Source of the DNA: Alphaproteobacteria bacterium
GTDB lineage: Bacteria > Pseudomonadota > Alphaproteobacteria > UBA9219
Assembly (NCBI GenBank): GCA_009779135.1
Contig: WREW01000011.1
Location: 1-38,858, forward strand
Reading direction: 5' to 3'
DNA length: 38,858 nt
In this document: positions 731 to 35,592 of the stretch, piece by piece
How positions within the stretch are numbered: the stretch's first letter is position 1
Layout of the letters: each line of letters opens with the position of its first letter
The notes under the pieces: model-generated
What the model was told of the DNA's origin: nothing
The model's input: only the letters and a program-made list of their open reading frames with translations
The model's database searches: none
Translations under genes and position numbers: made by a program

Positions 731-943
731 ATGGAAACACTATCAAACACACACACCACAGAAAAAACACCTGATACAGCCAATACAGTACAAATCTTTG
801 ATTGCAATTCTTCTTACACTGTCCCTAACCTGAACGATCAGCCCGAAAGCATGATGGTGCCGGAAATGCTCACACTCATCGACATTTTGGCACGACAAGC
901 TGCGCGAGAGATTTGCAATCCTGAAAAAGGAGGCCTCATATGA
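731..943 (+). CDS. Small hypothetical protein of the tRNA-Met element
   Basis: A 70-residue acidic, Thr/Asn-rich protein that I do not recognise. The start is supported by a strong GGAGGAAA site directly upstream (721-728). Its stop overlaps the recombinase start (ATGA at 940-943), so the two are probably translationally coupled. The middle (residues 40-60) could form one amphipathic helix (PEMLTLIDILARQAAREI). Position and coupling suggest a small accessory to the recombinase, for example a directionality factor, but nothing in the sequence proves this. Confidence 0.55.
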   Translation: METLSNTHTTEKTPDTANTVQIFDCNSSYTVPNLNDQPESMMVPEMLTLIDILARQAAREICNPEKGGLI

Positions 944-2571
944 TATATGCGATCTATGCCCGTTACAGCTCCGATCTTCAAAGTGAACATTCCATTGAAG
1001 ATCAAGTCCGCCTTTGCCGCGAACGCATAGAGCAAAGCGGCGGCCATGTTGGGGAAATCTATACAGACGCCGCGATCAGCGGCGCGTTCGTTATCAACCG
1101 CCCGGGCATTCGAACTTTGCTTGAAGACGCCCGTCGTGGAAAGTTTGACCGTGTTATGGCCGAAGCACTTGACCGTATCAGCCGCGATCAAGAAGATGTG
1201 GCCGCTATTTTCAAACGGCTTTCACACCTCGACATTAAAATACACACGCTTTCCGAAGGTGAAATCTCAGAGCTTCATATCGGTTTGAAAGGCACGATGA
1301 ACGCTCTGTTCTTGAAGGATATTGCCGCAAAAGTCCGGCGTGGCCAGCGCGGGCGTTTGGAAGATGGATTGGCTCCTGCCGGCATTTGTTACGGCTATCG
1401 CCCTGTCCACGAGATGAACGCGCGAGGCGAAGTCAGCCGCGGCAAGCGTGAAATTATTGAAGATCAAGCCGACATCATCCGCCGCATTTTCAAAGAATAT
1501 GTGGCAGGCGTAAGCCCGCGAGCCATTGCCAAAACTCTTAATATAGAAGGAATCCCTAGCCCGCGCGGCGGCCAATGGGTGGCTTCGGCTATCAATGGCA
1601 GCCGTTCACGTAAAAGCGGCATTTTGCATAACGAGCTTTACGTTGGGCGTATGACTTACAACCGCCAAACTTTCCGCAAAGACCCTGACACAGGCAAACG
1701 TATTCCCCGCATTAACCCGCAAAGCGAGTGGAAAACAGCCGAAGTTCCCGATCTTCGCATTATACCGGACGAGCTATGGAACCGCGTTCATGCCATCAAA
1801 TACCAAAAAAGCAAAAATATGCCCATTCATAGAACACGCCGCCCTAAGCACCTCTTTTCCGGCCTTGTACATTGCGGAACTTGTGGCGGAAGCTATACCA
1901 TCAATGGCGGCTCGCAACTAAGATGTAGCAAAAGGCGTGAAAGCGGCATATGTACCAACAACCGCGTTGTTTCCGTTGAAACGCTGGAAACCAAAATCCT
2001 GCAAGGGTTAGAACGCCGTCTGCTTTCCGAGGAAGCCTTTGCGCGTTTTGTAAAAACCTATAACGAAGAACGCGCCGCAATTCGGGCCGAACTCAACAAA
2101 CGCCATAATACCCGTGAAAAAGAACTGGCCGCAGCCAGCAAGCGTATCAAGCAAATCATTGACGCCGTTTGCGAGGGCTTTAAATCCAACGCCATGCGCG
2201 AAGAACTAATGGCCCTTGAGAAAAGGGTTGAGGAACTTAATCTGGAAACCAAACTCGAAAGAGATGTGCCGTCCAATGTCATTGAAATCCATCCTCAACT
2301 TCCGGTTATTTACGAAAAAAAGGTCAAGACCCTGCGCCAAGCCCTGAACCAAGGCCACACAGCCCGTGCCGAGGCCATAGAAGCCCTACGGGCCATGATA
2401 ACGGACATTACGGTAAAAGCGGGCGCGAAGAAGGGAGAGGTCATCCTTGAGCTTCACGGCTCAATCCCTGCCGTTTTGGCCTTTGCCGCAGGCAAGGAGG
2501 GTTCAAATCACGATCATACTGCATTAGTGGTAGCAGCGGAGGGATTTGAACCCCCGACCAAGGGATTATGA
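940..2571 (+). CDS. Large serine recombinase (resolvase/recombinase family)
   Basis: The 543-residue protein is a site-specific DNA integrase/excisionase of the large serine recombinase class. The N-terminal resolvase domain (about 1-150) has the YARYSSDLQS motif with predicted nucleophile Ser10, preceded by Arg8, and the DRISRD arginines near residue 80. A Recombinase domain follows (about 160-290), then a zinc ribbon with HCGTCGG and two later cysteines (about 308-338), then a long charged coiled-coil-like segment (about 370-450). The start has AAAGGAGG upstream and overlaps the previous stop. The last residues (AEGFEPPTKGL) are antisense translation of tRNA-Met, so the natural C-terminus has been set by the insertion target. 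Family assignment is secure; the tRNA as attB is inference. Confidence 0.92.
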   Translation: MIYAIYARYSSDLQSEHSIEDQVRLCRERIEQSGGHVGEIYTDAAISGAFVINRPGIRTLLEDARRGKFDRVMAEALDRISRDQEDVAAIFKRLSHLDIKIHTLSEGEISELHIGLKGTMNALFLKDIAAKVRRGQRGRLEDGLAPAGICYGYRPVHEMNARGEVSRGKREIIEDQADIIRRIFKEYVAGVSPRAIAKTLNIEGIPSPRGGQWVASAINGSRSRKSGILHNELYVGRMTYNRQTFRKDPDTGKRIPRINPQSEWKTAEVPDLRIIPDELWNRVHAIKYQKSKNMPIHRTRRPKHLFSGLVHCGTCGGSYTINGGSQLRCSKRRESGICTNNRVVSVETLETKILQGLERRLLSEEAFARFVKTYNEERAAIRAELNKRHNTREKELAAASKRIKQIIDAVCEGFKSNAMREELMALEKRVEELNLETKLERDVPSNVIEIHPQLPVIYEKKVKTLRQALNQGHTARAEAIEALRAMITDITVKAGAKKGEVILELHGSIPAVLAFAAGKEGSNHDHTALVVAAEGFEPPTKGL

Positions 2572-5553: not shown

Positions 5554-5810
5554 GGAAAAACAACCCTTTCAGGAAAAAAGACCAGAAAAATCCGAACCCA
5601 AGGCACCCATCATGCCTGAAACAGCCTCAAGAAACAGTAAAAATTGGCTTCTCAATCTTAAATAAGCCCCCTCTGCGCCGCTTTCAAGGGATAGGGGAAA
5701 TATTAAGTAAGATATTGAAAAGATATGAAACTATTAGAATCCTATGGTTTCGGCAGCGTTTTTATGGTAGAAAAAATAAACATCTTTATACCTTATTGCA
5801 GGGGGACGGC

Positions 5811-6500
5811 ATGGGATACCATGATTATCGCGGGGTAGATTCCAACGGGAACGAGACCAACAACAAAGCTTGGAACTATCGCTTTTGGGACTATCTCACA
5901 TCAAAATCCCATTACCTTAAACCGCACCACAACACTTTTCTCAACACTATGAAAAAGGCGGCCAAAGAAGTCCTCACGCCTTCGGAGCAAAAAACATTCA
6001 ATAAAGCGCTCGAAAAGACCCTCGCCTGCAACATGGGGGAAAGAAATGACAAAATCTTTTTTGCCCGCCTTCCGGGGAAGGTTCAGCATATGGCGATGAA
6101 AGTCATGTGGGGATGCAATCCGGCGCAAGGCGTTATTAAGAACAAAAGGGATTATTGGAATATTCAAAACCCAAAGAATGTCAAAACCGGCTACGAAGGT
6201 GTGCCTACAGTTGTAGCTGGATCTTTCGCGCTCGCGGCCACCAGTATCTTTAATAGCCGTCCCGTTACAGCCGCGCTCTTGTTAGGCGCAGGCATGGCTC
6301 TTACCTACTTCACAGACAAGATTCTTGAAAAAAGAAAAACAGATTTAAGCCAACGTTTCAGCCGGATCGGTATTCCCTACTGCAATATTATAAAAGAAGC
6401 CGAAGAGGATTTTACAGACAGCATTGACATTCCCGGACGTCTTAGAACCGTGCGTAGAAAAGAAGCTCGGGCAAAAAACTATCATGTACTGTTTACCTAA
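5811..6500 (+). CDS. Hypothetical protein with two possible membrane segments
   Basis: I do not recognise this 229-residue protein. The N-terminal 130 residues are polar, basic and rich in aromatic residues (for example WNYRFWDYL). Two hydrophobic stretches follow at about 131-147 and 151-167, separated by a short NSRP turn, so a membrane hairpin is possible. The C-terminal 60 residues are charged. The start at 5811 is preferred over an upstream in-frame ATG at 5724 because AGGGGGA lies four bases upstream. The gene is the only plus-strand gene inside the lon-clpX-clpP-tig block and converges on clpX with a 4-base overlap of stop codons. A GAAACTATTA sequence upstream (5727-5736) recurs elsewhere as a candidate regulatory motif. 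Confidence 0.65.
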
Positions 6501-10896: not shown

Positions 10897-11967
10897 CTAC
10901 GGCTTAGGTGTCATCCTGCTACTAAGCACGTTTGGAATCTTGATGTTCAGCCGTTTATCAGAGGGCCGCAGTAAATCTTCCGCCTGTAAGCAGCCCCACA
11001 CCATAAAACCAATTTCTGTCATTTTGAATTGGCGTCTGTCCCTGCGGACTTCCGGCGGCGCAAGGTCTGATTTCCTAAGCGGCGGACTCGTGTGTTTGAA
11101 GATGTAAGCTTGCCCTACGCGGAAAGCTTCACGCAATTCCAGAAATAGTGAAGCGGCTTCCATAGCGTTGGGAACAAGAAGTTCCGCTGAAGCTTGATTG
11201 ACAGCCGCGCGGATGGTTTTCGGGTTAATCGTCACCAGATAATCCATCTGTGCCTTGCTGATTTCGCTGACACAAAAGGCTTCGTATGCGGGGCGCAGAT
11301 CGTTAGGCAAGTTAAACCTCTGGAACCACTCAAACGGAAAGCCATTGATGGTTTCAATCATGTAAGGCGGCTTGCGCGGCACAAACAAAGCTTGAATAGT
11401 TGGGTCAACCGTTTGCAGTGGCACAGACAATGGCGCAAATGGGTTGATGATCGAGGATATTTCAACGCTATAGGCTACACGCAGAGGATCAGCACCACAG
11501 AAAAATGTGAGTATATGCCCATGTGCCGCCCATGCAAAGTAACGTGAGGCATGCATCCAAGGGATGTCGGCGTTTTTTTCATTATCTGACATACTTTCAC
11601 GTTCAGGGTGCGCTTCAAAATAAGCGCGAGTTCCTTTGTGCTGGATGAGTGCTTTGCCAAAACCTTGGAAATTCTCAAGAACTTGTCCAACAGGTGTAAA
11701 TTCAATCAGGACAATTCCTGTGCGTTGTGCCGTCTGTAAAATGCGTTCTTGATGGCGGATGAAATCGCTTGCGGCATAGGGGCCGAAAGGGCCAGCCATG
11801 TTTTTAATCACCCTATCCTTGTCCGGCCCTGAATAGAATCCAACACCAAAAAGAGGAACAATCGCGCCATCGCGGGCGAAGGCCATCCGACCATCGCTTT
11901 CAACTAAAGGGTCAATAATAAGCTGGTTGATGTTATAAGAGGTCAACCACTCGTCACGCGGCCACAT
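10897..11967 (-). CDS. Hypothetical protein, island cargo candidate
   Basis: I do not recognise this 356-residue protein. It looks soluble, with no signal peptide or membrane segment. The first 120 residues mix short beta-like runs (AIVPLFGVGFYSG, GIVLIEFTPVG); the middle is rich in aromatic residues (HASRYFAWAAHGHILTFF); the C-terminal half is helical with a basic tail. The start is supported by AAGGAG seven bases upstream. A second unknown gene (11995-12516) lies 27 bases upstream on the same strand, so the two probably form an operon. They occupy the part of the island next to attL, where such islands usually carry cargo. Defence or stress roles are possible but unsupported. Confidence 0.7.
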   Translation of the reverse strand: MWPRDEWLTSYNINQLIIDPLVESDGRMAFARDGAIVPLFGVGFYSGPDKDRVIKNMAGPFGPYAASDFIRHQERILQTAQRTGIVLIEFTPVGQVLENFQGFGKALIQHKGTRAYFEAHPERESMSDNEKNADIPWMHASRYFAWAAHGHILTFFCGADPLRVAYSVEISSIINPFAPLSVPLQTVDPTIQALFVPRKPPYMIETINGFPFEWFQRFNLPNDLRPAYEAFCVSEISKAQMDYLVTINPKTIRAAVNQASAELLVPNAMEAASLFLELREAFRVGQAYIFKHTSPPLRKSDLAPPEVRRDRRQFKMTEIGFMVWGCLQAEDLLRPSDKRLNIKIPNVLSSRMTPKP

Positions 11968-11994: not shown

Positions 11995-12516
11995 TTAAGC
12001 GAGATTATGAGCGCGTGGCGGCAGACCACATTGTCTTCTTATTTCTTCCAGATAAGGTCTTGTCATAGCCAGACCTCTCTCTAGATCCTCTCCCTCAAGT
12101 GGCTTATAGGGCTTTTCCTCTACCTTCGGATAAGGATGCCAAGCCCATTTAAGAGCTTCTATGATTGTGGTATCAGTGATTGGTTCAGACTCTCGTGAAA
12201 GAGTAACGTCTAAAATCCATCCTTCTCTGGGTTCCCCAAACTTGCCGTTCAGGGCGTCAATCAACGCGGGCGTAAAGTCCTTAGGAAGAATCTCTTCGAC
12301 ACGGTCTTCTTGAAACCCCCATACACCAATGCTGGCGTAAAAAGCCCGCCCATCTTCCCCTTCAAAAACAGCACCAAGCAGACCTTCGTAGCCATTACCT
12401 CGGCCAACCTGTGCCACCAATCTGGCTGTATATTTTTTTGGCGCGTTCACGGTTAACCAACTCCAAAGCCACCCCAGAAGGCGGAAAGGTTTATTCATGA
12501 TTTCTGATTTAAGCAT
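11995..12516 (-). CDS. Hypothetical protein, first gene of the island cargo pair
   Basis: A 173-residue protein that I do not recognise. Residues 7-22 (NKPFRLLGWLWSWLTV) are hydrophobic with tryptophans and could be a weak membrane anchor or amphipathic helix. The rest is acidic and soluble in appearance, with a GYEGLLGAVFEGEDGRAFYAS stretch like a beta hairpin and a Pro/Glu-rich C-terminal third. The start at 12516 has AGGGG about seven bases upstream; MNKPF at 12498 is an alternative. It is the promoter-proximal gene of the pair with 10897-11967. A candidate regulatory region lies upstream (12564-12614). Confidence 0.65.
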   Translation of the reverse strand: MLKSEIMNKPFRLLGWLWSWLTVNAPKKYTARLVAQVGRGNGYEGLLGAVFEGEDGRAFYASIGVWGFQEDRVEEILPKDFTPALIDALNGKFGEPREGWILDVTLSRESEPITDTTIIEALKWAWHPYPKVEEKPYKPLEGEDLERGLAMTRPYLEEIRRQCGLPPRAHNLA

Positions 12517-12563: not shown

Positions 12564-12614
12564 AATACTTTCATGAAGAAAAAAGCGAAAAATGATTGGT
12601 TAAAGCATTGTTAA
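12564..12614 (-). promoter_or_regulatory. Motif cluster upstream of the island cargo pair
   Basis: AATACTTTCATGA (12564-12576) matches AATAGTTTCATGA, the reverse complement of the element at 31487-31499 and 31563-31575, at 12 of 13 positions. TTAAAGCATTGTTAA (12600-12614) fits the CtrA-type TTAA-N7-TTAA pattern. The stretch is AT-rich and lies 48-98 bases ahead of the 12516 start. Confidence 0.35.
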
Positions 12615-12716
12615 TATTGATTATTTTCATGTTAACCGCAAGGCCCAAAGACCATTTACCATATTGTTTTCAATGGATATTTTACGGCTTTCCCATCTTA
12701 GCCATAGCGCAGGTGT

Positions 12717-16267: not shown

Positions 16268-16507
16268 ATGAAAGTTGGAAAAAGGGGCGTTTTTATTGAG
16301 GATCCATGTAAAACCAACAGTTGGAAATTGCCTTGTGCGCGCCGATTAATCTTGAACACAGGCGGGTATTTGCCGGAACTGGCGGGAACCGTGAGATACA
16401 TTTTTGGCGTGAATAAACAATCAAGATTTATTCATGGCTTCAGGCAAAAACAACAGTTGAATAAGGATTTTCTATACTTCCTTGCGCCTTATGGGCGTGA
16501 CGTTTGA
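16268..16507 (+). CDS. Doubtful small ORF at the island's integrase end
   Basis: A possible 79-residue basic protein starting MKVGKRGVF, with GAGGG eight bases upstream. Its end overlaps the integrase 3' end by 36 bases on the opposite strand. It has no recognisable domain, and the region 16183-16471 is otherwise without a gene. It may not be expressed. Confidence 0.25.
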   Translation: MKVGKRGVFIEDPCKTNSWKLPCARRLILNTGGYLPELAGTVRYIFGVNKQSRFIHGFRQKQQLNKDFLYFLAPYGRDV

Positions 16508-17722
16508 ACCTGCCTTGACCGATGGCGTTGAACAGTAACGCGCCCATGCTTCCATCAGCTGCCGGCGTTTGTCGAACAGATCGCTTCGCCTGTAGGCGGC
16601 TTCCACCTTGTCACTAACAGCATGAGCCAGCGCAGCTTCGGCAACCTCACGCGGGAAGTTGGTTTGCTCTGCCGCCCAGTCTCGGAATGTGGAGCGGAAT
16701 CCGTGAACCGTTATATCTGTGCGCTTCATGCGTTTCAGCAAGGCCAGCATCGCCATGTTGGAAAGCGGCTTATCCTTGCGCTGGCTTGTGAAAACATAAC
16801 CGCCCTTCTTGTGTGAACCTTCCTCTTGCATGGACAAGAGCAAGTCAAGCGCGGCTTGTGACAATGGCACCCTATGCTCACGGCCTGCTTTGATGCGGTT
16901 GGCGGGGATAGTCCATATCCTTTTCTTGAGGTCGATTTCATTCCATGTCGCGCCTATCGCTTCGCTGGTGCGTGAGGCTGTGAGGATGACAAAGGTCAGC
17001 GCTTTAGATGCTGTTCCTTCCTGCGCGGCGAGTGCAAGCATGAAGTCGCCAATCTCGCTATAAGGCAAGGCAGGCTGGTGCTGGACGCGCTGAACCTTTG
17101 CTTTGGCGGGCAGCACGTTATCGAGGTTTCCTTTCCAGCGGGCAGGGTTTTCCTTTGCCCTGTAGCCGCGTGTGGCGGCATAATCAAGGATAGCCTCGAT
17201 GCGCCCGCGCAGGCGGTTAGCCGTTTCGGTCTTGATGCTCCAAAGAGGCTCGATGACCTGCAAGACCAGTGCGAGGTCTATTGCCTGCGCGGGCAGGTTC
17301 CCAAGGACAGGATAGGCGAAGCTCTCAAGTGTGCTTGACCATTGCGCGGCGTGCTTTGCGTTTTTCCATCCGGCCTTGTGTGCTTCTATGTAAGCCTCGG
17401 CACAGTCCTTGAAGGTCTTCTCTTTTGCCTTGGCAAGGGCGGCCTGTGCCTTTGCGGTGTCGCGCTCTGCCAGCGGGTCTTTGCCTTCAGCTATCAGCTT
17501 ACGGCACGCCGCAGCCCGCAGCCGCGCGTCTGCAAGGGAGATGGTCTGAAGGGAGCCAAGCCCCATCTCGTGCGCCTTGCCTTGAAACATGAAGCGGAAA
17601 ACCCAAAACTTTCCGCCATTGTTTTTCACGCGCAGGTAAAGACCAGCCCCGTCACGACGAAGGCCTTTTTGCTTCAGATTTGCCACCTTGAGCGCTGTAA
17701 GAAGGTTTGTTCTGTGTGCCAT
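16472..17722 (-). CDS. P4-type tyrosine integrase
   Basis: The 416-residue protein catalyses island integration and excision at tRNA-Ser. The N-terminal DUF4102-type arm-binding domain (1-85; GLRRDGAGLYLRVKNNGGK) is followed by a SAM-like core-binding domain (about 100-200) and the catalytic domain with Arg251 (TASRTSEAIG), His340-x-x-Arg343 (HGFRSTFRDW), His367 (LAHAVS) and nucleophile Tyr377 (AAYRRSD). All expected catalytic residues are present. The start at 17722 has GGAAG five bases upstream; an upstream in-frame start at 17791 would translate the arm-site repeats and is rejected. It is transcribed inward from attR, so its promoter lies among the arm sites, as in P4, where integrase represses itself. 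Confidence 0.95.
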   Translation of the reverse strand: MAHRTNLLTALKVANLKQKGLRRDGAGLYLRVKNNGGKFWVFRFMFQGKAHEMGLGSLQTISLADARLRAAACRKLIAEGKDPLAERDTAKAQAALAKAKEKTFKDCAEAYIEAHKAGWKNAKHAAQWSSTLESFAYPVLGNLPAQAIDLALVLQVIEPLWSIKTETANRLRGRIEAILDYAATRGYRAKENPARWKGNLDNVLPAKAKVQRVQHQPALPYSEIGDFMLALAAQEGTASKALTFVILTASRTSEAIGATWNEIDLKKRIWTIPANRIKAGREHRVPLSQAALDLLLSMQEEGSHKKGGYVFTSQRKDKPLSNMAMLALLKRMKRTDITVHGFRSTFRDWAAEQTNFPREVAEAALAHAVSDKVEAAYRRSDLFDKRRQLMEAWARYCSTPSVKAGSNVTPIRRKEV

Positions 17723-17771
17723 GTGCGCTTCCTTCCGCCGAAATCCAGTCCTACAAACGCCAGTTCCCGCC

Positions 17772-17816
17772 AGTCCCACAAATAGTCCCACAAATGTGAG
17801 CGGGATTTTGTGGGAC
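17772..17816. repeat. Right integrase arm-type sites (two direct units plus one inverted)
   Basis: Positions 17772-17796 repeat the left-end block exactly (two AGTCCCACAAAT units). An inverted TTTGTGGGAC lies at 17807-17816. They sit 50-94 bases upstream of the integrase start, so binding could also control its promoter. The rest of 17723-18042 holds the att site and no gene. Confidence 0.8.
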
Positions 17817-29762: not shown

Positions 29763-31324
29763 ACAAAAAGTTTTTCAACTTCGCTAAATACACTTTGATA
29801 ACTTTTCTCGTTCTGCTTGTGCTGCTGGTGGCGGGCGTTGCCGTGCGCCTGATATATATGCCTGACTTGCGGCCATGGCACCGTTTCGTTCCCGTTGAAT
29901 TGACGGCGGCGGAAATGGATCGCGCAACATGGCAGGACTATATTGAGCGCGAAAACAAAATATTTGCCGATGTTATCCGCGAAGTGGTTTCAAAGACTCC
30001 CGAAAGCGAAAACACGCCGGTCAACCGCTATTTTGAAGGCAGTCTCGTCCATCCGGCAAACTTTAAAGAGGACTGGAACCGCTCTTACCTCCTGATCCCC
30101 AAACATCCGAAAGGCGCCGTTGTTTTGTTGCATGGCCTGACGGACTCGCCCTACAGCCTGCGGCATATCGCGCAAATATATTACCAAAAAGGCTTTGTTG
30201 CGCTGGGACTAAGACTGCCGGCACATGGCACAGTCCCAGGCGCGCTGACGAAAAGCGTCTGGCAGGACTGGATGGCCGCCACAAAAATGGCCGTGAGAGA
30301 AGCAAGAAAAATGACTCCGGCAGACACGCCCTTGCATCTGGTCGGATTTTCACAAGGCGGCACGCTTGCCATCAAATATGCGCTGGACGCGCTTGAAGAC
30401 AGCAGCCTAAGCCGCCCCGACAGACTGGTTTTGATTTCGCCGATGGTCGGCATTACGCGGCTTTCCAAGCTGGCGGAAATTATGGATCTGCCTTCAGTCC
30501 TTCCTGGTTTTGAAAAAGCCGCATGGCTTAGTATTATTCCCGAGTTCAATCCGTTCAAATACAACTCATTCCCCGTCAACGCCGTGAAGCAAGCGCGCCT
30601 GCTGATCGCCGATATGAGGCGGCAAATCATAAGACTGCATAGAAACAGCCTGATAAAAGAGCTTCCGCCCATCATGACGTTTCAGTCTATCGTCGATTAC
30701 ACAGTCAGCACGCCGGCGCTTATAAATGACCTTTACAGCTATTTGTCGAGTCATGGAAACGAACTGGTATTGTTCGATGTCAACCGCGACACGGCCTTCA
30801 CGCCGCTGGTGCGTCCGGTTTTTGTTAATATGGTTTCAAAGATGCTGCCGGATTTACCCCAGCGTTACAAAATAACGATCATCGGCAACGCCGCCACCGG
30901 CGACTCCGGCGCTGCGGAGAAAATTGCCGCGCCCGGCAGCAAGGATTTTATAGCCAGAAAACTGGGGCTTCTCTATCCGCCGAATGTCTTTTCACTCTCC
31001 CACATCTCATTGCCCTTTCCGGAGAGCGACCCTCTATACGGCTCCGCGCCGAACCCTGAAACAAAGAACGAGTTCGGCGTGAATCTGGGCCTTGTCGCCA
31101 ACGCGCAGGGCGAGCGCGGTGTTTTGGAAATAAACACGAACCTGTTTTTCAGAATCTCCTCAAACCCCCTGTTCCCTTATCTGGTAGAGCGCATAAATGA
31201 TGCAATAAACACCACCCCTACGCCGCAAGAGCTCCCCGCCATCACAAACACAAAATCCAAAATCACCGAAGAAGAATACGACGCCCTCATGAAAGAGTCC
31301 GATTACAAAGAAACACCATTTTAG
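29759..31324 (+). CDS. Membrane-anchored alpha/beta hydrolase
   Basis: The 521-residue protein has an N-terminal membrane helix (about 12-32) and a serine hydrolase domain of the S33/Hydrolase_4 type. The nucleophile is Ser198 in GFSQGG and the oxyanion strand motif is LLHGLTDSP (123-131). The long C-terminal half contains a predicted catalytic His candidate in FSLSHISLPFPESDPLYG. The helix suggests the catalytic part faces the periplasm. The substrate is unknown; lipid or peptide ester cleavage are options. It is translationally coupled to rnhB. The C-terminal 45 residues are charged and probably disordered. Confidence 0.8.
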   Translation: MNKKFFNFAKYTLITFLVLLVLLVAGVAVRLIYMPDLRPWHRFVPVELTAAEMDRATWQDYIERENKIFADVIREVVSKTPESENTPVNRYFEGSLVHPANFKEDWNRSYLLIPKHPKGAVVLLHGLTDSPYSLRHIAQIYYQKGFVALGLRLPAHGTVPGALTKSVWQDWMAATKMAVREARKMTPADTPLHLVGFSQGGTLAIKYALDALEDSSLSRPDRLVLISPMVGITRLSKLAEIMDLPSVLPGFEKAAWLSIIPEFNPFKYNSFPVNAVKQARLLIADMRRQIIRLHRNSLIKELPPIMTFQSIVDYTVSTPALINDLYSYLSSHGNELVLFDVNRDTAFTPLVRPVFVNMVSKMLPDLPQRYKITIIGNAATGDSGAAEKIAAPGSKDFIARKLGLLYPPNVFSLSHISLPFPESDPLYGSAPNPETKNEFGVNLGLVANAQGERGVLEINTNLFFRISSNPLFPYLVERINDAINTTPTPQELPAITNTKSKITEEEYDALMKESDYKETPF

Positions 31325-31460
31325 AATGCCGCCCCTATAGCCCTCCTTTTCGTGGGGGAGTGTTGTCTTCTTCAGCCCGCCTCCCGCCGAAAATCCCTTT
31401 TTTGAGAAAAAACGGATGACCTACCCATTTTTGGTCTAAAACTACCCATTATAGGTAACG

Positions 31461-31575
31461 TTAATAGTTTCTTAACCTGTTTTTCCTCATGAAACTATTA
31501 TCCTCATGGTAAAATAGCCTTTATGAGCCACTAAAAAAGCTCATACCGAAATGGTTAATAAATCATGAAACTATT
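31461..31575 (+). promoter_or_regulatory. CtrA-type site and repeated TCATGAAACTATT elements
   Basis: TTAATAGTTTCTTAA (31461-31475) is a full TTAA-N7-TTAA match, followed by C as in the CtrA consensus. Direct copies of TCATGAAACTATT stand at 31487-31499 and 31563-31575, and AATAGTTTCT inside the CtrA-type site is a near copy in the opposite direction. The last copy ends 24 bases before the 31600 start. The rest of 31325-31599 is AT-rich with no gene. Confidence 0.45.
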
Positions 31576-31599
31576 TTGAGAAAGCAAAGGAGAAAGGCT

Positions 31600-32121
31600 A
31601 TGCTAAACACAGGATTGATTGAAATGACTCGTCTGATTCCCTCGCTGTGGGAGTTTGACATCTGGAACTTGGAAATGACTACCCCACCCGCACGCTTAGA
31701 TCCTGTTGCATCAATCGTCGAAGGCGATGGAGCAGGCGTCTATAGAGGCCGTCCTGAATATTTTGTTTTTCCTCTTCCTGATGGTGAAAACTTTGCGATT
31801 TTGCCTCTCTCCGGTGCCAAACCCGATTCTGGTAAGGAAGCCTACTACTATGACAAAGGCAGTTATCTTCGCCACGACCATCGTCTTTATCTCTTGATTA
31901 AACAGGAGCCTGATAAGTTTCATAAAATCACTCTAGGCGACACATACAATATGGACGGTGCTTTTCTGAGTGATGAGCATAAAAAATATCTTAAAGAACC
32001 GCTTGAGGCCAGATGGGAACAATACCAAGCGGAGTTGCGAGATAACAAGGATTGGGAAGAAGCGCAAGCGGCTAAATGGGCAGAATACCGAAGGGGGTTG
32101 CCAAAACCAGGCTTGACTTGA
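31600..32121 (+). CDS. Hypothetical protein, first gene of an unknown pair
   Basis: A 173-residue soluble protein that I do not recognise. The first 110 residues alternate strands and turns (GRPEYFVFPLPDGENFAILPLSG, then YYYDKGSYLRHDHRLYLLIKQ); the last 50 form a charged helix with tryptophans (ARWEQYQAELRDNKDWEEAQAAKWAEYR). AAAGGAGAAAGG precedes the start at 31600; an upstream TTG frame is rejected. The next gene follows after 15 bases. The promoter region is unusually rich in repeats, including a CtrA-type sequence. Confidence 0.7.
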   Translation: MLNTGLIEMTRLIPSLWEFDIWNLEMTTPPARLDPVASIVEGDGAGVYRGRPEYFVFPLPDGENFAILPLSGAKPDSGKEAYYYDKGSYLRHDHRLYLLIKQEPDKFHKITLGDTYNMDGAFLSDEHKKYLKEPLEARWEQYQAELRDNKDWEEAQAAKWAEYRRGLPKPGLT

Positions 32122-32136: not shown

Positions 32137-33081
32137 ATGTCTTCTTTTCGCCATATAGCCAACGGCATTATCGACAGCGTTAAGGCTGTTATCCTCAAAG
32201 ACGGTACGGCAGCGTATCCTTATGATGGTATAGGCGGCCTTTATTCCGGTGCGCGTAAGGAAATCTTCAAGCGCACTCTTGGCCTTGATTCTGCATTTCA
32301 GGGCAATCACCAACTCATCAAACAAGTCGCGCCGCTTTTGGGCATAAAGCTTATTGATGATATGAACATCTACCAGCAGGTTTTAGGTAATGTTTATGGC
32401 TCCGGCTTGCATGTTTATGCTTACCTTCAACAAGCCTTAGCCGCTTATGGCGAAGAAACGGCCAAAGACGAAGCCGATCGCGTCATGCGCCATGCTTCGC
32501 TGTATTTTGTCGATAGTCTTTGGGGTGATGTTTATGCTTTTGTTTGGGGCGCCGGACGTGACCGTGTCTTTTTTGATACTGAGTTTCCGCGCATGGGTAT
32601 TGAAGCGGCCAGCCTTATTACCCATCTGGCCAAGTCGCGCGATATTGAAACCGTTAATGATGGCTCCATTATGGACATTCGCAAGCTTCACAAGCATCAC
32701 GCGATTGAAACGGCGTTTCGTCTTGTTTGTATCAATGGGCTTGATGTGCTTCACCGTTTGGCATGGAACACAAAGCTGGCTGAAATCAAAAGCATTCACG
32801 GCGACGCTCAGGAACTTTACATGCTTGATCTTTCCCTCGCCTTCAAGGATGTTTACAAGGAATTGACGAATCCTAACGTATCCAGACGTGAGATTGAACA
32901 GCTCCACTACAAAATGAACCGCAAAGACTTTGACGCCAGACGCATGCCCCGCCACTGCGGAACGCCGGAGGGCAGGCTTTCACGCAAGGAAGCTTCCATG
33001 CTGCATTTTATCACGATGACAACCCCAAGGCCTACAACCCTAACGATCCAAAACAATACCGGACGGAGTCTCAAGCGTTGA
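32137..33081 (+). CDS. Hypothetical protein, second gene of the unknown pair
   Basis: A 314-residue protein that I do not recognise. It appears soluble and mostly helical, with many His, Tyr and Asp residues (RKLHKHHAIETAFRLV, HASLYFVDSLWGDVYAFVWG). The first 50 residues include a Gly/Tyr-rich stretch (AYPYDGIGGLYSGARKE). The C-terminal 60 residues are basic. TAAGGAG precedes the start. It shares a transcript with the 31600 gene. Its last 42 bases overlap the end of the convergent secreted-protein gene; the protein may have been extended at its end, because the final 20 residues look like out-of-frame antisense sequence. Confidence 0.65.
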   Translation: MSSFRHIANGIIDSVKAVILKDGTAAYPYDGIGGLYSGARKEIFKRTLGLDSAFQGNHQLIKQVAPLLGIKLIDDMNIYQQVLGNVYGSGLHVYAYLQQALAAYGEETAKDEADRVMRHASLYFVDSLWGDVYAFVWGAGRDRVFFDTEFPRMGIEAASLITHLAKSRDIETVNDGSIMDIRKLHKHHAIETAFRLVCINGLDVLHRLAWNTKLAEIKSIHGDAQELYMLDLSLAFKDVYKELTNPNVSRREIEQLHYKMNRKDFDARRMPRHCGTPEGRLSRKEASMLHFITMTTPRPTTLTIQNNTGRSLKR

Positions 33082-35131: not shown

Positions 35132-35181
35132 TCCTTAACAGGATGCTAACGCTTTTAGGTTATCATAATAGAGTAAAAAAC

Positions 35182-35191
35182 AATAGTTTCA
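35182..35191. promoter_or_regulatory. AATAGTTTCA element in the yibQ/divK intergenic region
   Basis: The 10-base sequence is the reverse complement of TGAAACTATT found at 5726-5735, 31490-31499 and 31566-31575. It sits 27-36 bases ahead of the divK start in the short gap between two divergent genes. Confidence 0.3.
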
Positions 35192-35217
35192 CAAGCTAGG
35201 TTCTGATGGACGTCCCC

Positions 35218-35592
35218 ATGCAAAAAACCGTTCTGATTGTTGAGGACAATGAGCTTAATCAAAAATTGTTCCATGACCTCCTAGAGGCCAATGGCTTTTT
35301 GACGATCCACACGGCAGACGGGCTTGAGGCGGTCGATCTTGCGCGCGCCCACAAACCTGATCTGATCCTGATGGACATCCAACTCCCTGAGATTTCAGGG
35401 CTTGAAGTCACAGCCCTGCTTAAAAAAGACATGGAATTGTGCCGGATACCGGTCGTAGCGCTGACGGCCTTTGCCATGAAAGGCGATGCCGAGAAAATCC
35501 TAGCCGGCGGGTGCGAGGGTTATTTATCCAAACCCATATCTGTAGCCTCTTTCCTTGAGACGGTACGTCGCTATACTGACGTGCAGGATTAA
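35218..35592 (+). CDS. divK: Single-domain response regulator DivK
   Basis: The 124-residue protein is a receiver domain without an output domain. In Caulobacter, DivK is phosphorylated by DivJ and PleC, and acts on CckA and PleD to control cell-cycle progression. Phospho-acceptor Asp53 (LILMDIQLP), acidic pair Glu9-Asp10, Thr83 (ALTAF) and Lys105 (LSKPIS) are present. The start at 35218 ([11 protein letters not shown]) puts the aspartate at 53, exactly as in Caulobacter DivK (about 125 residues); the in-frame ATG at 35206 is the alternative. pleD follows after 20 bases, the classic arrangement. Confidence 0.94.

What the first reader, a model, noticed from the sequence alone, without database searches (positions are those of the whole stretch)
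31461..31575. CtrA-type site combined with repeated TCATGAAACTATT
The promoter of the unknown pair has a perfect TTAA-N7-TTAA, two direct 13-base repeats 76 bases apart and an overlapping inverted near-copy. Given divK, pleD, lon and clpXP in this window, cell-cycle control is plausible. Simple arithmetic gives about 0.6 chance occurrences of TTAA-N7-TTAA in 39 kb at equal base use, so the site alone is weak; its combination with the repeats is the interesting part.
Basis: partly seen in the sequence, partly recalled or inferred. Interest (0 to 1): 0.55.

Follow-up and report, generated by a model that had tools for sequence, protein, structure and literature searches.

The report
Two-part CtrA-type promoter of orphan genes

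Summary
At 31461-31575 lie a perfect TTAA-N7-TTAA, an overlapping inverted near-copy, and two exact TCATGAAACTATT copies 76 bases apart. The core TGAAACTATT ("T-box", my name) occurs 17 times in the 1.55-Mb genome against 2 for the reversed pattern, all outside likely genes. Gene 2 of the pair has seven copies here and relatives in 10 of 189 other genomes, all in one taxonomic family. In 24 pair promoters read, a T-box stands 33-36 bases before the start codon in 21 (shuffles: at most 2), and another follows a CtrA-type box at 23-25 bases in 13 (shuffles: at most 1). A second, unrelated gene family has the same layout in four places. CtrA is encoded; none of the four OmpR-type regulators is a PmrA equivalog. 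Best reading: a CtrA-dependent promoter gated by an unidentified second factor that binds T-boxes. Neither binding nor gene function is shown; structure models failed and one candidate binder was tested without support.

The parts
31461..31477 (+). CtrA-type box TTAATAGTTTCTTAACC
   Evidence: one of 11 TTAA-N7-TTAACC in the genome
31463..31475 (-). inverted T-box near-copy (2 mismatches to the 13-mer) overlapping the CtrA-type box
31487..31499 (+). upstream T-box (T1), TCATGAAACTATT
31510..31515 (+). candidate -10 TAAAAT, preceded by TGG
   Evidence: by eye; not among the sites, which instead offers TTAACC-18-TATTAT (31472-31501) and TTGAGA-17-TATGCT (31576-31604) on this strand; inference
31553..31558 (-). 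TTAACC, half-site of CtrA type, in the leader
   Evidence: by eye; inference
31563..31575 (+). downstream T-box (T2); its core TGAAACTATT begins 34 bases before the start codon of gene 1
31587..31592 (+). Shine-Dalgarno AAGGAG
   Evidence: by eye
31600..32121 (+). gene 1 of the pair, 173 aa, no Pfam, NCBIfam or PADLOC match
32137..33081 (+). gene 2 of the pair, 314 aa, no family match; seven copies in the genome
12598..12614 (-). CtrA-type box of the second pair in the window
12564..12576 (-). T-box TCATGAAAGTATT of the second pair
12620..12632 (-). further T-like box ACATGAAAATAAT upstream
11995..12516 (-). ORF in the gene-1 place of the second pair, 173 aa; similarity to 31600-32121 not significant (E 2.4)
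10897..11967 (-). gene 2 of the second pair, 356 aa, homologous to 32137-33081 (E 8e-7 in a two-sequence comparison; family profile hit)
35135..35150 (+). CtrA-type box with one mismatch (TTAACAGGATGCTAAC) before the DivK-like gene
35182..35191 (-). T-box before the DivK-like gene 35206-35592
5726..5735 (+). T-box before the 229-aa orphan gene 5811-6500

Best explanation
31461-31599 is the control region of a two-gene operon of unknown function and belongs to a regulon found mainly in one genus of Micavibrio-like alphaproteobacteria. Shown: a CtrA-type box, then a T-box (consensus TGAAA-N-(T/C)-A-(A/T)-T), then a second T-box just before the Shine-Dalgarno sequence, with near-fixed spacing over many paralogues and relatives and in a second, unrelated gene family. 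Inferred: phosphorylated CtrA binds the TTAA-N7-TTAA box and switches the promoter on in the CtrA-active phase; a second DNA-binding protein, not identified, binds T1 next to CtrA and T2 in the leader and sets a second condition, most likely by gating initiation or escape from both sides of the start site. The genes would then be made in one cell type only, plausibly the free-swimming stage before contact with another cell. Not shown: binding by either protein, direction of the effect, timing, and what the genes do.
For: Counts and placement. T2 at 33-36 bases before the start codon in 21 of 24 pair promoters, 16 of 19 after removing near-duplicates, against shuffle means of 0.15 and 0.12 and maxima of 2; CtrA-type box followed by a forward T1 at 23-25 bases in 13 of 24 and 9 of 19, maxima of 1, 300 shuffles each. 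In the 16 representatives with T2, aligned on it, its columns average 1.53 bits against 0.2-0.3 upstream and 0.76 in the Shine-Dalgarno region. All 7 own pairs have a perfect TTAA-N7-TTAA upstream. Composite pattern, matches against reversed pattern: 23 against 1 in the six genomes of the genus, 9 against 1 in 18 others of the family. A membrane-protein family unrelated to the pairs (blastp) has the layout in four of four copies seen here, with T2 reversed at -29, two of the four T2 with one mismatch. T-boxes occur in either orientation and at varied places upstream of other genes, which points to a DNA site. TGAAACTATT in the 33 genomes of the order: 258 against 108 reversed; in 26 outside: 129 against 144 (sums). 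A sugar transferase gene has a T-box upstream both here and in another family of the order (43% identity). CtrA is present.
Against: No binding or expression data. The T-box consensus was made by eye from these promoters, so the score is partly circular, and the promoters are related by descent. Of the own pairs, C2 and C11:12516 lack T2 at the usual place, C4 has a weak one and no T1 near its CtrA box, C3 has T1 reversed. The relative in G007 (L092) shows neither box. The region before ctrA has no strict box. Only 3 of 16 own T-box windows hold a perfect CtrA site (shuffle mean 0.125, maximum 2) and 9 of 16 one with up to a mismatch (mean 2.2, maximum 6), so many T-boxes stand without a CtrA site. 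In the five other genomes of the genus the exact 10-mer is hardly enriched (34 against 24). The composite pattern is also in excess outside the order, 27 against 13 in 26 genomes, and 3 against 0 in the 9 other genomes of the order. Four alike composite hits in relatives (L170, L173, L178, L179) are followed by no convincing gene. Two of the four membrane-protein copies have interrupted reading frames.
Confidence: 0.66

Rival explanations
1. T2 is an RNA element of the leader that controls translation (standby site, small-RNA or protein binding), while T1 is a separate DNA site that only resembles it.
For: In the 21 pair promoters with T2 it is in the sense strand and at a near-fixed distance to the start codon, while its distance to T1 varies from 74 to 107 in the 20 promoters with both.
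Against: In the membrane-protein family T2 is reversed yet also at a fixed place, -29 (4 of 4); T1 and T2 are identical 13-mers in the finding; the leader of the finding folds better than shuffles (z -2.95), but those of three other promoters do not (z 0.58, -0.56, 0.62); no Rfam match in 31300-31700.
Confidence: 0.2
2. T-boxes are only parts of ordinary sigma-70-like promoters (TGAAA standing for TTGACA), kept by recent duplication of gene cassettes.
For: In the finding T1 lies where a -35 would be if TAAAAT at 31510 is the -10, and part of it is the -10 in a site of the consensus scan; the promoters of the pairs descend from duplications.
Against: T-boxes lie upstream, over or downstream of candidate -10 sequences and in both orientations; the stretch upstream of T2 has lost most similarity while T2 is kept (0.2-0.3 against 1.53 bits).
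Confidence: 0.1
3. The TTAA-N7-TTAA box is read by another OmpR-type regulator, in the manner in which PmrA controls type IVB secretion effectors in Legionella and Coxiella, and the pairs are such effectors.
For: The genome has type IVB genes (DotA/TraY over its cut-off; DotG/IcmE and IcmL/DotI below theirs), and a TraQ-like gene of that cluster, just under its cut-off, follows a T-box (C1:153691). That PmrA boxes contain TTAA-N7-TTAA is recalled; a paper search for it gave nothing.
Against: Of the four OmpR-type regulators one is CtrA and none of the other three reaches any equivalog cut-off shown, PmrA included. No CtrA-type box with up to one mismatch within about 130 bases of that type IVB T-box.
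Confidence: 0.06

Closest known systems
CtrA-activated promoters of Caulobacter and other Alphaproteobacteria
   Same: Full TTAA-N7-TTAA site upstream, in an organism that encodes CtrA and PleD
   Different: A second motif with near-fixed spacing on both sides of the start site; by eye the box lies upstream of the -35 in most pairs, whereas the start of the abstract of PMC11264516 (seen in the listing) puts most Caulobacter sites at -35; the targets are orphan lineage-specific genes
CtrA promoters with a co-regulator (SciP, MucR, GcrA or DnaA in Caulobacter; PMC4287350, passages seen)
   Same: CtrA site combined with the site of another factor
   Different: The T-box does not resemble the SciP (GCGAC) or DnaA (CTCCACA-type) motifs quoted there; MucR and GcrA motifs were not compared; no T-box factor is known to me
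Stage-specific genes of Micavibrio aeruginosavorus ARL-13 (PMC3189940, passages seen)
   Same: Related lineage by name, with attack and attachment phases of different transcriptome, including many hypothetical genes
   Different: That genome is reported without type III or IV secretion; the word CtrA does not occur in the held text; I did not test whether it has the pairs

Membership tests
CtrA-dependent promoter | TTAA-N7-TTAA(C) full site | tested here: met
   31461-31477 perfect
CtrA-dependent promoter | CtrA encoded in the genome | tested here: met
   NF045991 423.6 bits, cut-off 350
CtrA-dependent promoter | Site recurs in front of paralogous and related genes | tested here: met
   perfect TTAA-N7-TTAA in 7 of 7 own pairs; a box with up to one mismatch more than 100 bases upstream in 16 of 17 relatives read, L107 being the exception
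CtrA-dependent promoter | CtrA binds and expression depends on it | not testable with these tools
   needs footprinting, ChIP or depletion
CtrA-dependent promoter | Box overlaps the -35 region, as in most Caulobacter cases | tested here: inconclusive
   no mapped start sites; by eye the box lies upstream of the candidate -35 in most pairs
PmrA-controlled type IVB effector | PmrA equivalog in the genome | tested here: not met
   four OmpR-type regulators; against the PmrA model CtrA scores 181.1, L050 121.8, L052 117.7 (cut-off 330) and L053 has no match
PmrA-controlled type IVB effector | Product translocated by the secretion system | not testable with these tools
   -
XRE-type regulator as T-box binder | T-box in front of the regulator genes in general | tested here: not met
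   two recent paralogues have one, but 0 of 20 other copies examined have an exact box and 2 of 20 one with a mismatch, reached by 50 permuted motifs
Known protein families, gene 2 | Match over a curated cut-off | tested here: not met
   none in Pfam, NCBIfam, PADLOC; best PDB profile hit E 0.77

The most novel reading that the evidence does not exclude
A so far undescribed transcription factor of Micavibrio-like bacteria binds T-boxes on both sides of CtrA promoters, forming a CtrA-assisted DNA loop or roadblock that releases amplified, fast-diverging protein pairs only at contact with another cell: a dedicated contact or weapon regulon wired into the cell-cycle master switch.
Probability: 0.15. 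Interest if true: 0.8.

Novelty: new variant of a known kind. Interest (0 to 1): 0.55.

Why it matters
It gives a sequence signature by which genes of unknown function that may serve one life stage of Micavibrio-like bacteria can be listed from genomes alone, and it suggests that the alphaproteobacterial master regulator CtrA has been wired, with an unknown partner, to lineage-specific amplified genes. In the held library I found no description: Micavibrio with CtrA gave no paper; Micavibrio with regulon gave nine papers, eight listed, none on this by title or abstract start; the 10-mer occurs in 43 papers, of which the 10 listed are on other subjects by title.

Tried and rejected
XRE-type proteins as T-box binders: the family is in 33 of 33 genomes of the order and 1 of 26 outside, and two own copies have a T-box, but 20 other copies examined (5 own, 15 of relatives; one own copy and many in relatives not examined) do not; not supported. 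T-box as half of a palindrome: flanks of 17 own and 30 order sites show no clear extension. Helical phasing of T1-T2 distances (76, 86, 96-99 and others): R 0.63 at 10.5 for n = 20, but 0.58 and 0.62 at 10 and 11, and the promoters are related; not conclusive. RNA structure of the leader: strong in the finding only, not in three other promoters. Structure prediction: gene 2 pLDDT 35.5, gene 1 44.6, so no fold search was run. Mobile origin of gene 2: no relative found in viral contigs or plasmids.

Rows dropped: one search lists 34 match rows; 24 promoters went into. Left out: L094 (both boxes present, T2 34 bases before the start; omitted by oversight, checked), L092 and L104 (one gene, no boxes), L108 (same promoter as L099), L110 (a fragment with stops, no boxes), and L090, L100 with a second row of that gene, L102 and L103 (upstream DNA cut by the contig end). 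In one search the two boxes of the finding were one window, giving 16 for 17 sites. For one search only six T-box sites of G029 (18 in all) and one of G030 (21 in all) were at hand; of G031 all 17.

Changed on checking: PmrA is now tested on all four regulators; the third family of genes is demoted because its members are not significantly alike (E 0.058); confidence lowered from 0.68 to 0.66 for that and for the interrupted frames.

Full report
Observation. The TTAA-N7-TTAA box alone is within chance (2 in the window, 0.61 expected). The repeated core TGAAACTATT is not: 4 exact copies in the window, all intergenic, against a maximum of 1 for 300 permuted motifs, and 17 in the genome against 2 for the reversed motif. 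TTAA-N7-TTAACC occurs 11 times against 1. All 17 and all 11 lie outside likely genes. With one mismatch allowed, 4 of 11 T-boxes of the window are inside genes.

What lies downstream. The pair 31600-32121 and 32137-33081 has no match in Pfam, NCBIfam or PADLOC, and a profile of gene 2 has none of note in PDB sequences. Gene 2 has seven copies in this genome: C11:32137, C33, C5, C2, C11:10897, C3 and C4. Each follows an ORF in the gene-1 place, but gene 1 is far less conserved: a genome search with it finds only itself at E up to 1, and blastp links the copies only in part (C5 with C33, C2 with C11:12516, C33 with the finding at E 0.009; C3 and C4 to none). The second copy in the same window (12516 to 10897, minus strand) owns the other TTAA-N7-TTAA of the window. 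Six of the eleven TTAA-N7-TTAACC sites stand before five of the seven pairs; the other two pairs have a perfect TTAA-N7-TTAA. Of 190 genomes examined, own included, 11 have the family, all in one taxonomic family, among them the 6 listed of the genus (the kinship of 159 genomes without a match is not listed). That the window is Micavibrio-like is inferred from this.

The layout. In 24 promoters (seven own, 17 of relatives) a forward T-box begins 33-36 bases before the start codon in 21, and a CtrA-type box (up to one mismatch) is followed after 23-25 bases by a forward T-box in 13; 300 dinucleotide shuffles never gave more than 2 and 1. With near-duplicates removed the counts are 16 and 9 of 19. 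In others T1 is reversed and 29-40 bases from the start of the box (C3, L096, L099, L113), and in the finding it is 29 bases away and forward. In 16 representatives aligned on T2 the box columns average 1.53 bits, the Shine-Dalgarno region 0.76, the upstream stretch 0.2-0.3, a random column 0.15. The consensus came from these same promoters and the 16 were chosen for having T2, so the figures lean in its favour.

Beyond the pairs. The composite pattern gives 23 places against 1 reversed in the six genomes of the genus, 9 against 1 in 18 others of the family, 3 against 0 in nine others of the order, and 27 against 13 in 26 genomes outside. In this genome it includes four copies of a membrane-protein family with no blastp link to the pairs, again with CtrA-type box, T1, candidate -10 and T2, here reversed and 29 bases before the start codon in all four. 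Two of these copies have interrupted frames. In two relatives three small genes that begin MLYT or MFYT have box and T1, one of them a clear T2; they are not significantly alike, so I do not count them as a family. Four alike hits (L170, L173, L178, L179) have no convincing gene behind them. Other T-boxes of this genome precede a DivK-like gene, a TraQ-like gene of a type IVB cluster, an exopolysaccharide-type sugar transferase, two XRE-type genes and small orphan proteins. The sugar transferase of another family in the order also has a T-box upstream. Over the order TGAAACTATT is 2.4 times as common as its reverse; outside it is not enriched; within the genus the own genome stands out.

Mechanism. 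CtrA is encoded and TTAA-N7-TTAA is its full motif in Caulobacter (PMC4287350, passages). I take CtrA binding as likely, not shown. T-boxes occur in both orientations, up- and downstream of candidate -10 sequences, and T1 keeps a narrow distance to the CtrA-type box, which fits a DNA-bound partner; T2 in the leader fits a roadblock or second anchor. Phasing of T1-T2 distances is suggestive only. An RNA role of T2 remains possible because of its near-fixed distance to the start codon in the pairs, but the leader structure of the finding is not shared by three other promoters. The partner is not identified; the XRE candidate failed its test.

Function. The pairs and membrane proteins are lineage-specific, multicopy and diverged, as proteins that face other cells often are; this is inference. 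M. aeruginosavorus has attack and attachment phases with different transcriptomes (PMC3189940, passages), so stage-specific expression is a natural prediction. This genome, unlike the report on that strain, has type IVB secretion genes, so secreted effectors are possible but untested.

Verdict. A real, recurring compound promoter of known general kind (CtrA) with an unknown second input; ordinary in principle, new in its parts.

Noticed in passing
L043 1033-1623 and 1113-1601; L044 1036-1635 and 1116-1613: In two own pair copies the conserved start MLxxRLIETxR and the body of gene 1 lie in different overlapping frames at the same place; frameshift, decay or a leader peptide.
   Followed up: partly
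L022 and L166 (G000:C15 and C23): Two of the four membrane-protein copies with the composite promoter have interrupted reading frames.
   Followed up: no
L012 1566-2207 and relatives: An XRE-type protein family (HTH_3 plus about 150 residues without a Pfam match) is in 33 of 33 genomes of the order, up to 28 copies, and in 1 of 26 outside.
   Followed up: partly
L012 2200-2925: Next to it a protein with a sub-threshold match to cyclodipeptide synthase.
   Followed up: no
L135 (G000:C1:146000-164000): Type IVB secretion genes (DotA/TraY over cut-off; IcmL/DotI twice and DotG/IcmE below theirs) in a Micavibrio-like genome, whereas M. aeruginosavorus ARL-13 is reported without type IV secretion.
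   Followed up: partly
window 940-2571 and 16472-17791: A serine recombinase with sub-threshold CcrB match and an integrase-domain protein on the same contig, signs of integrated elements.
   Followed up: no
window 31522-31578: Two predicted hairpins in the leader, the second holding part of T2 (z -2.95 for 31522-31625), not seen in three other promoters.
   Followed up: yes
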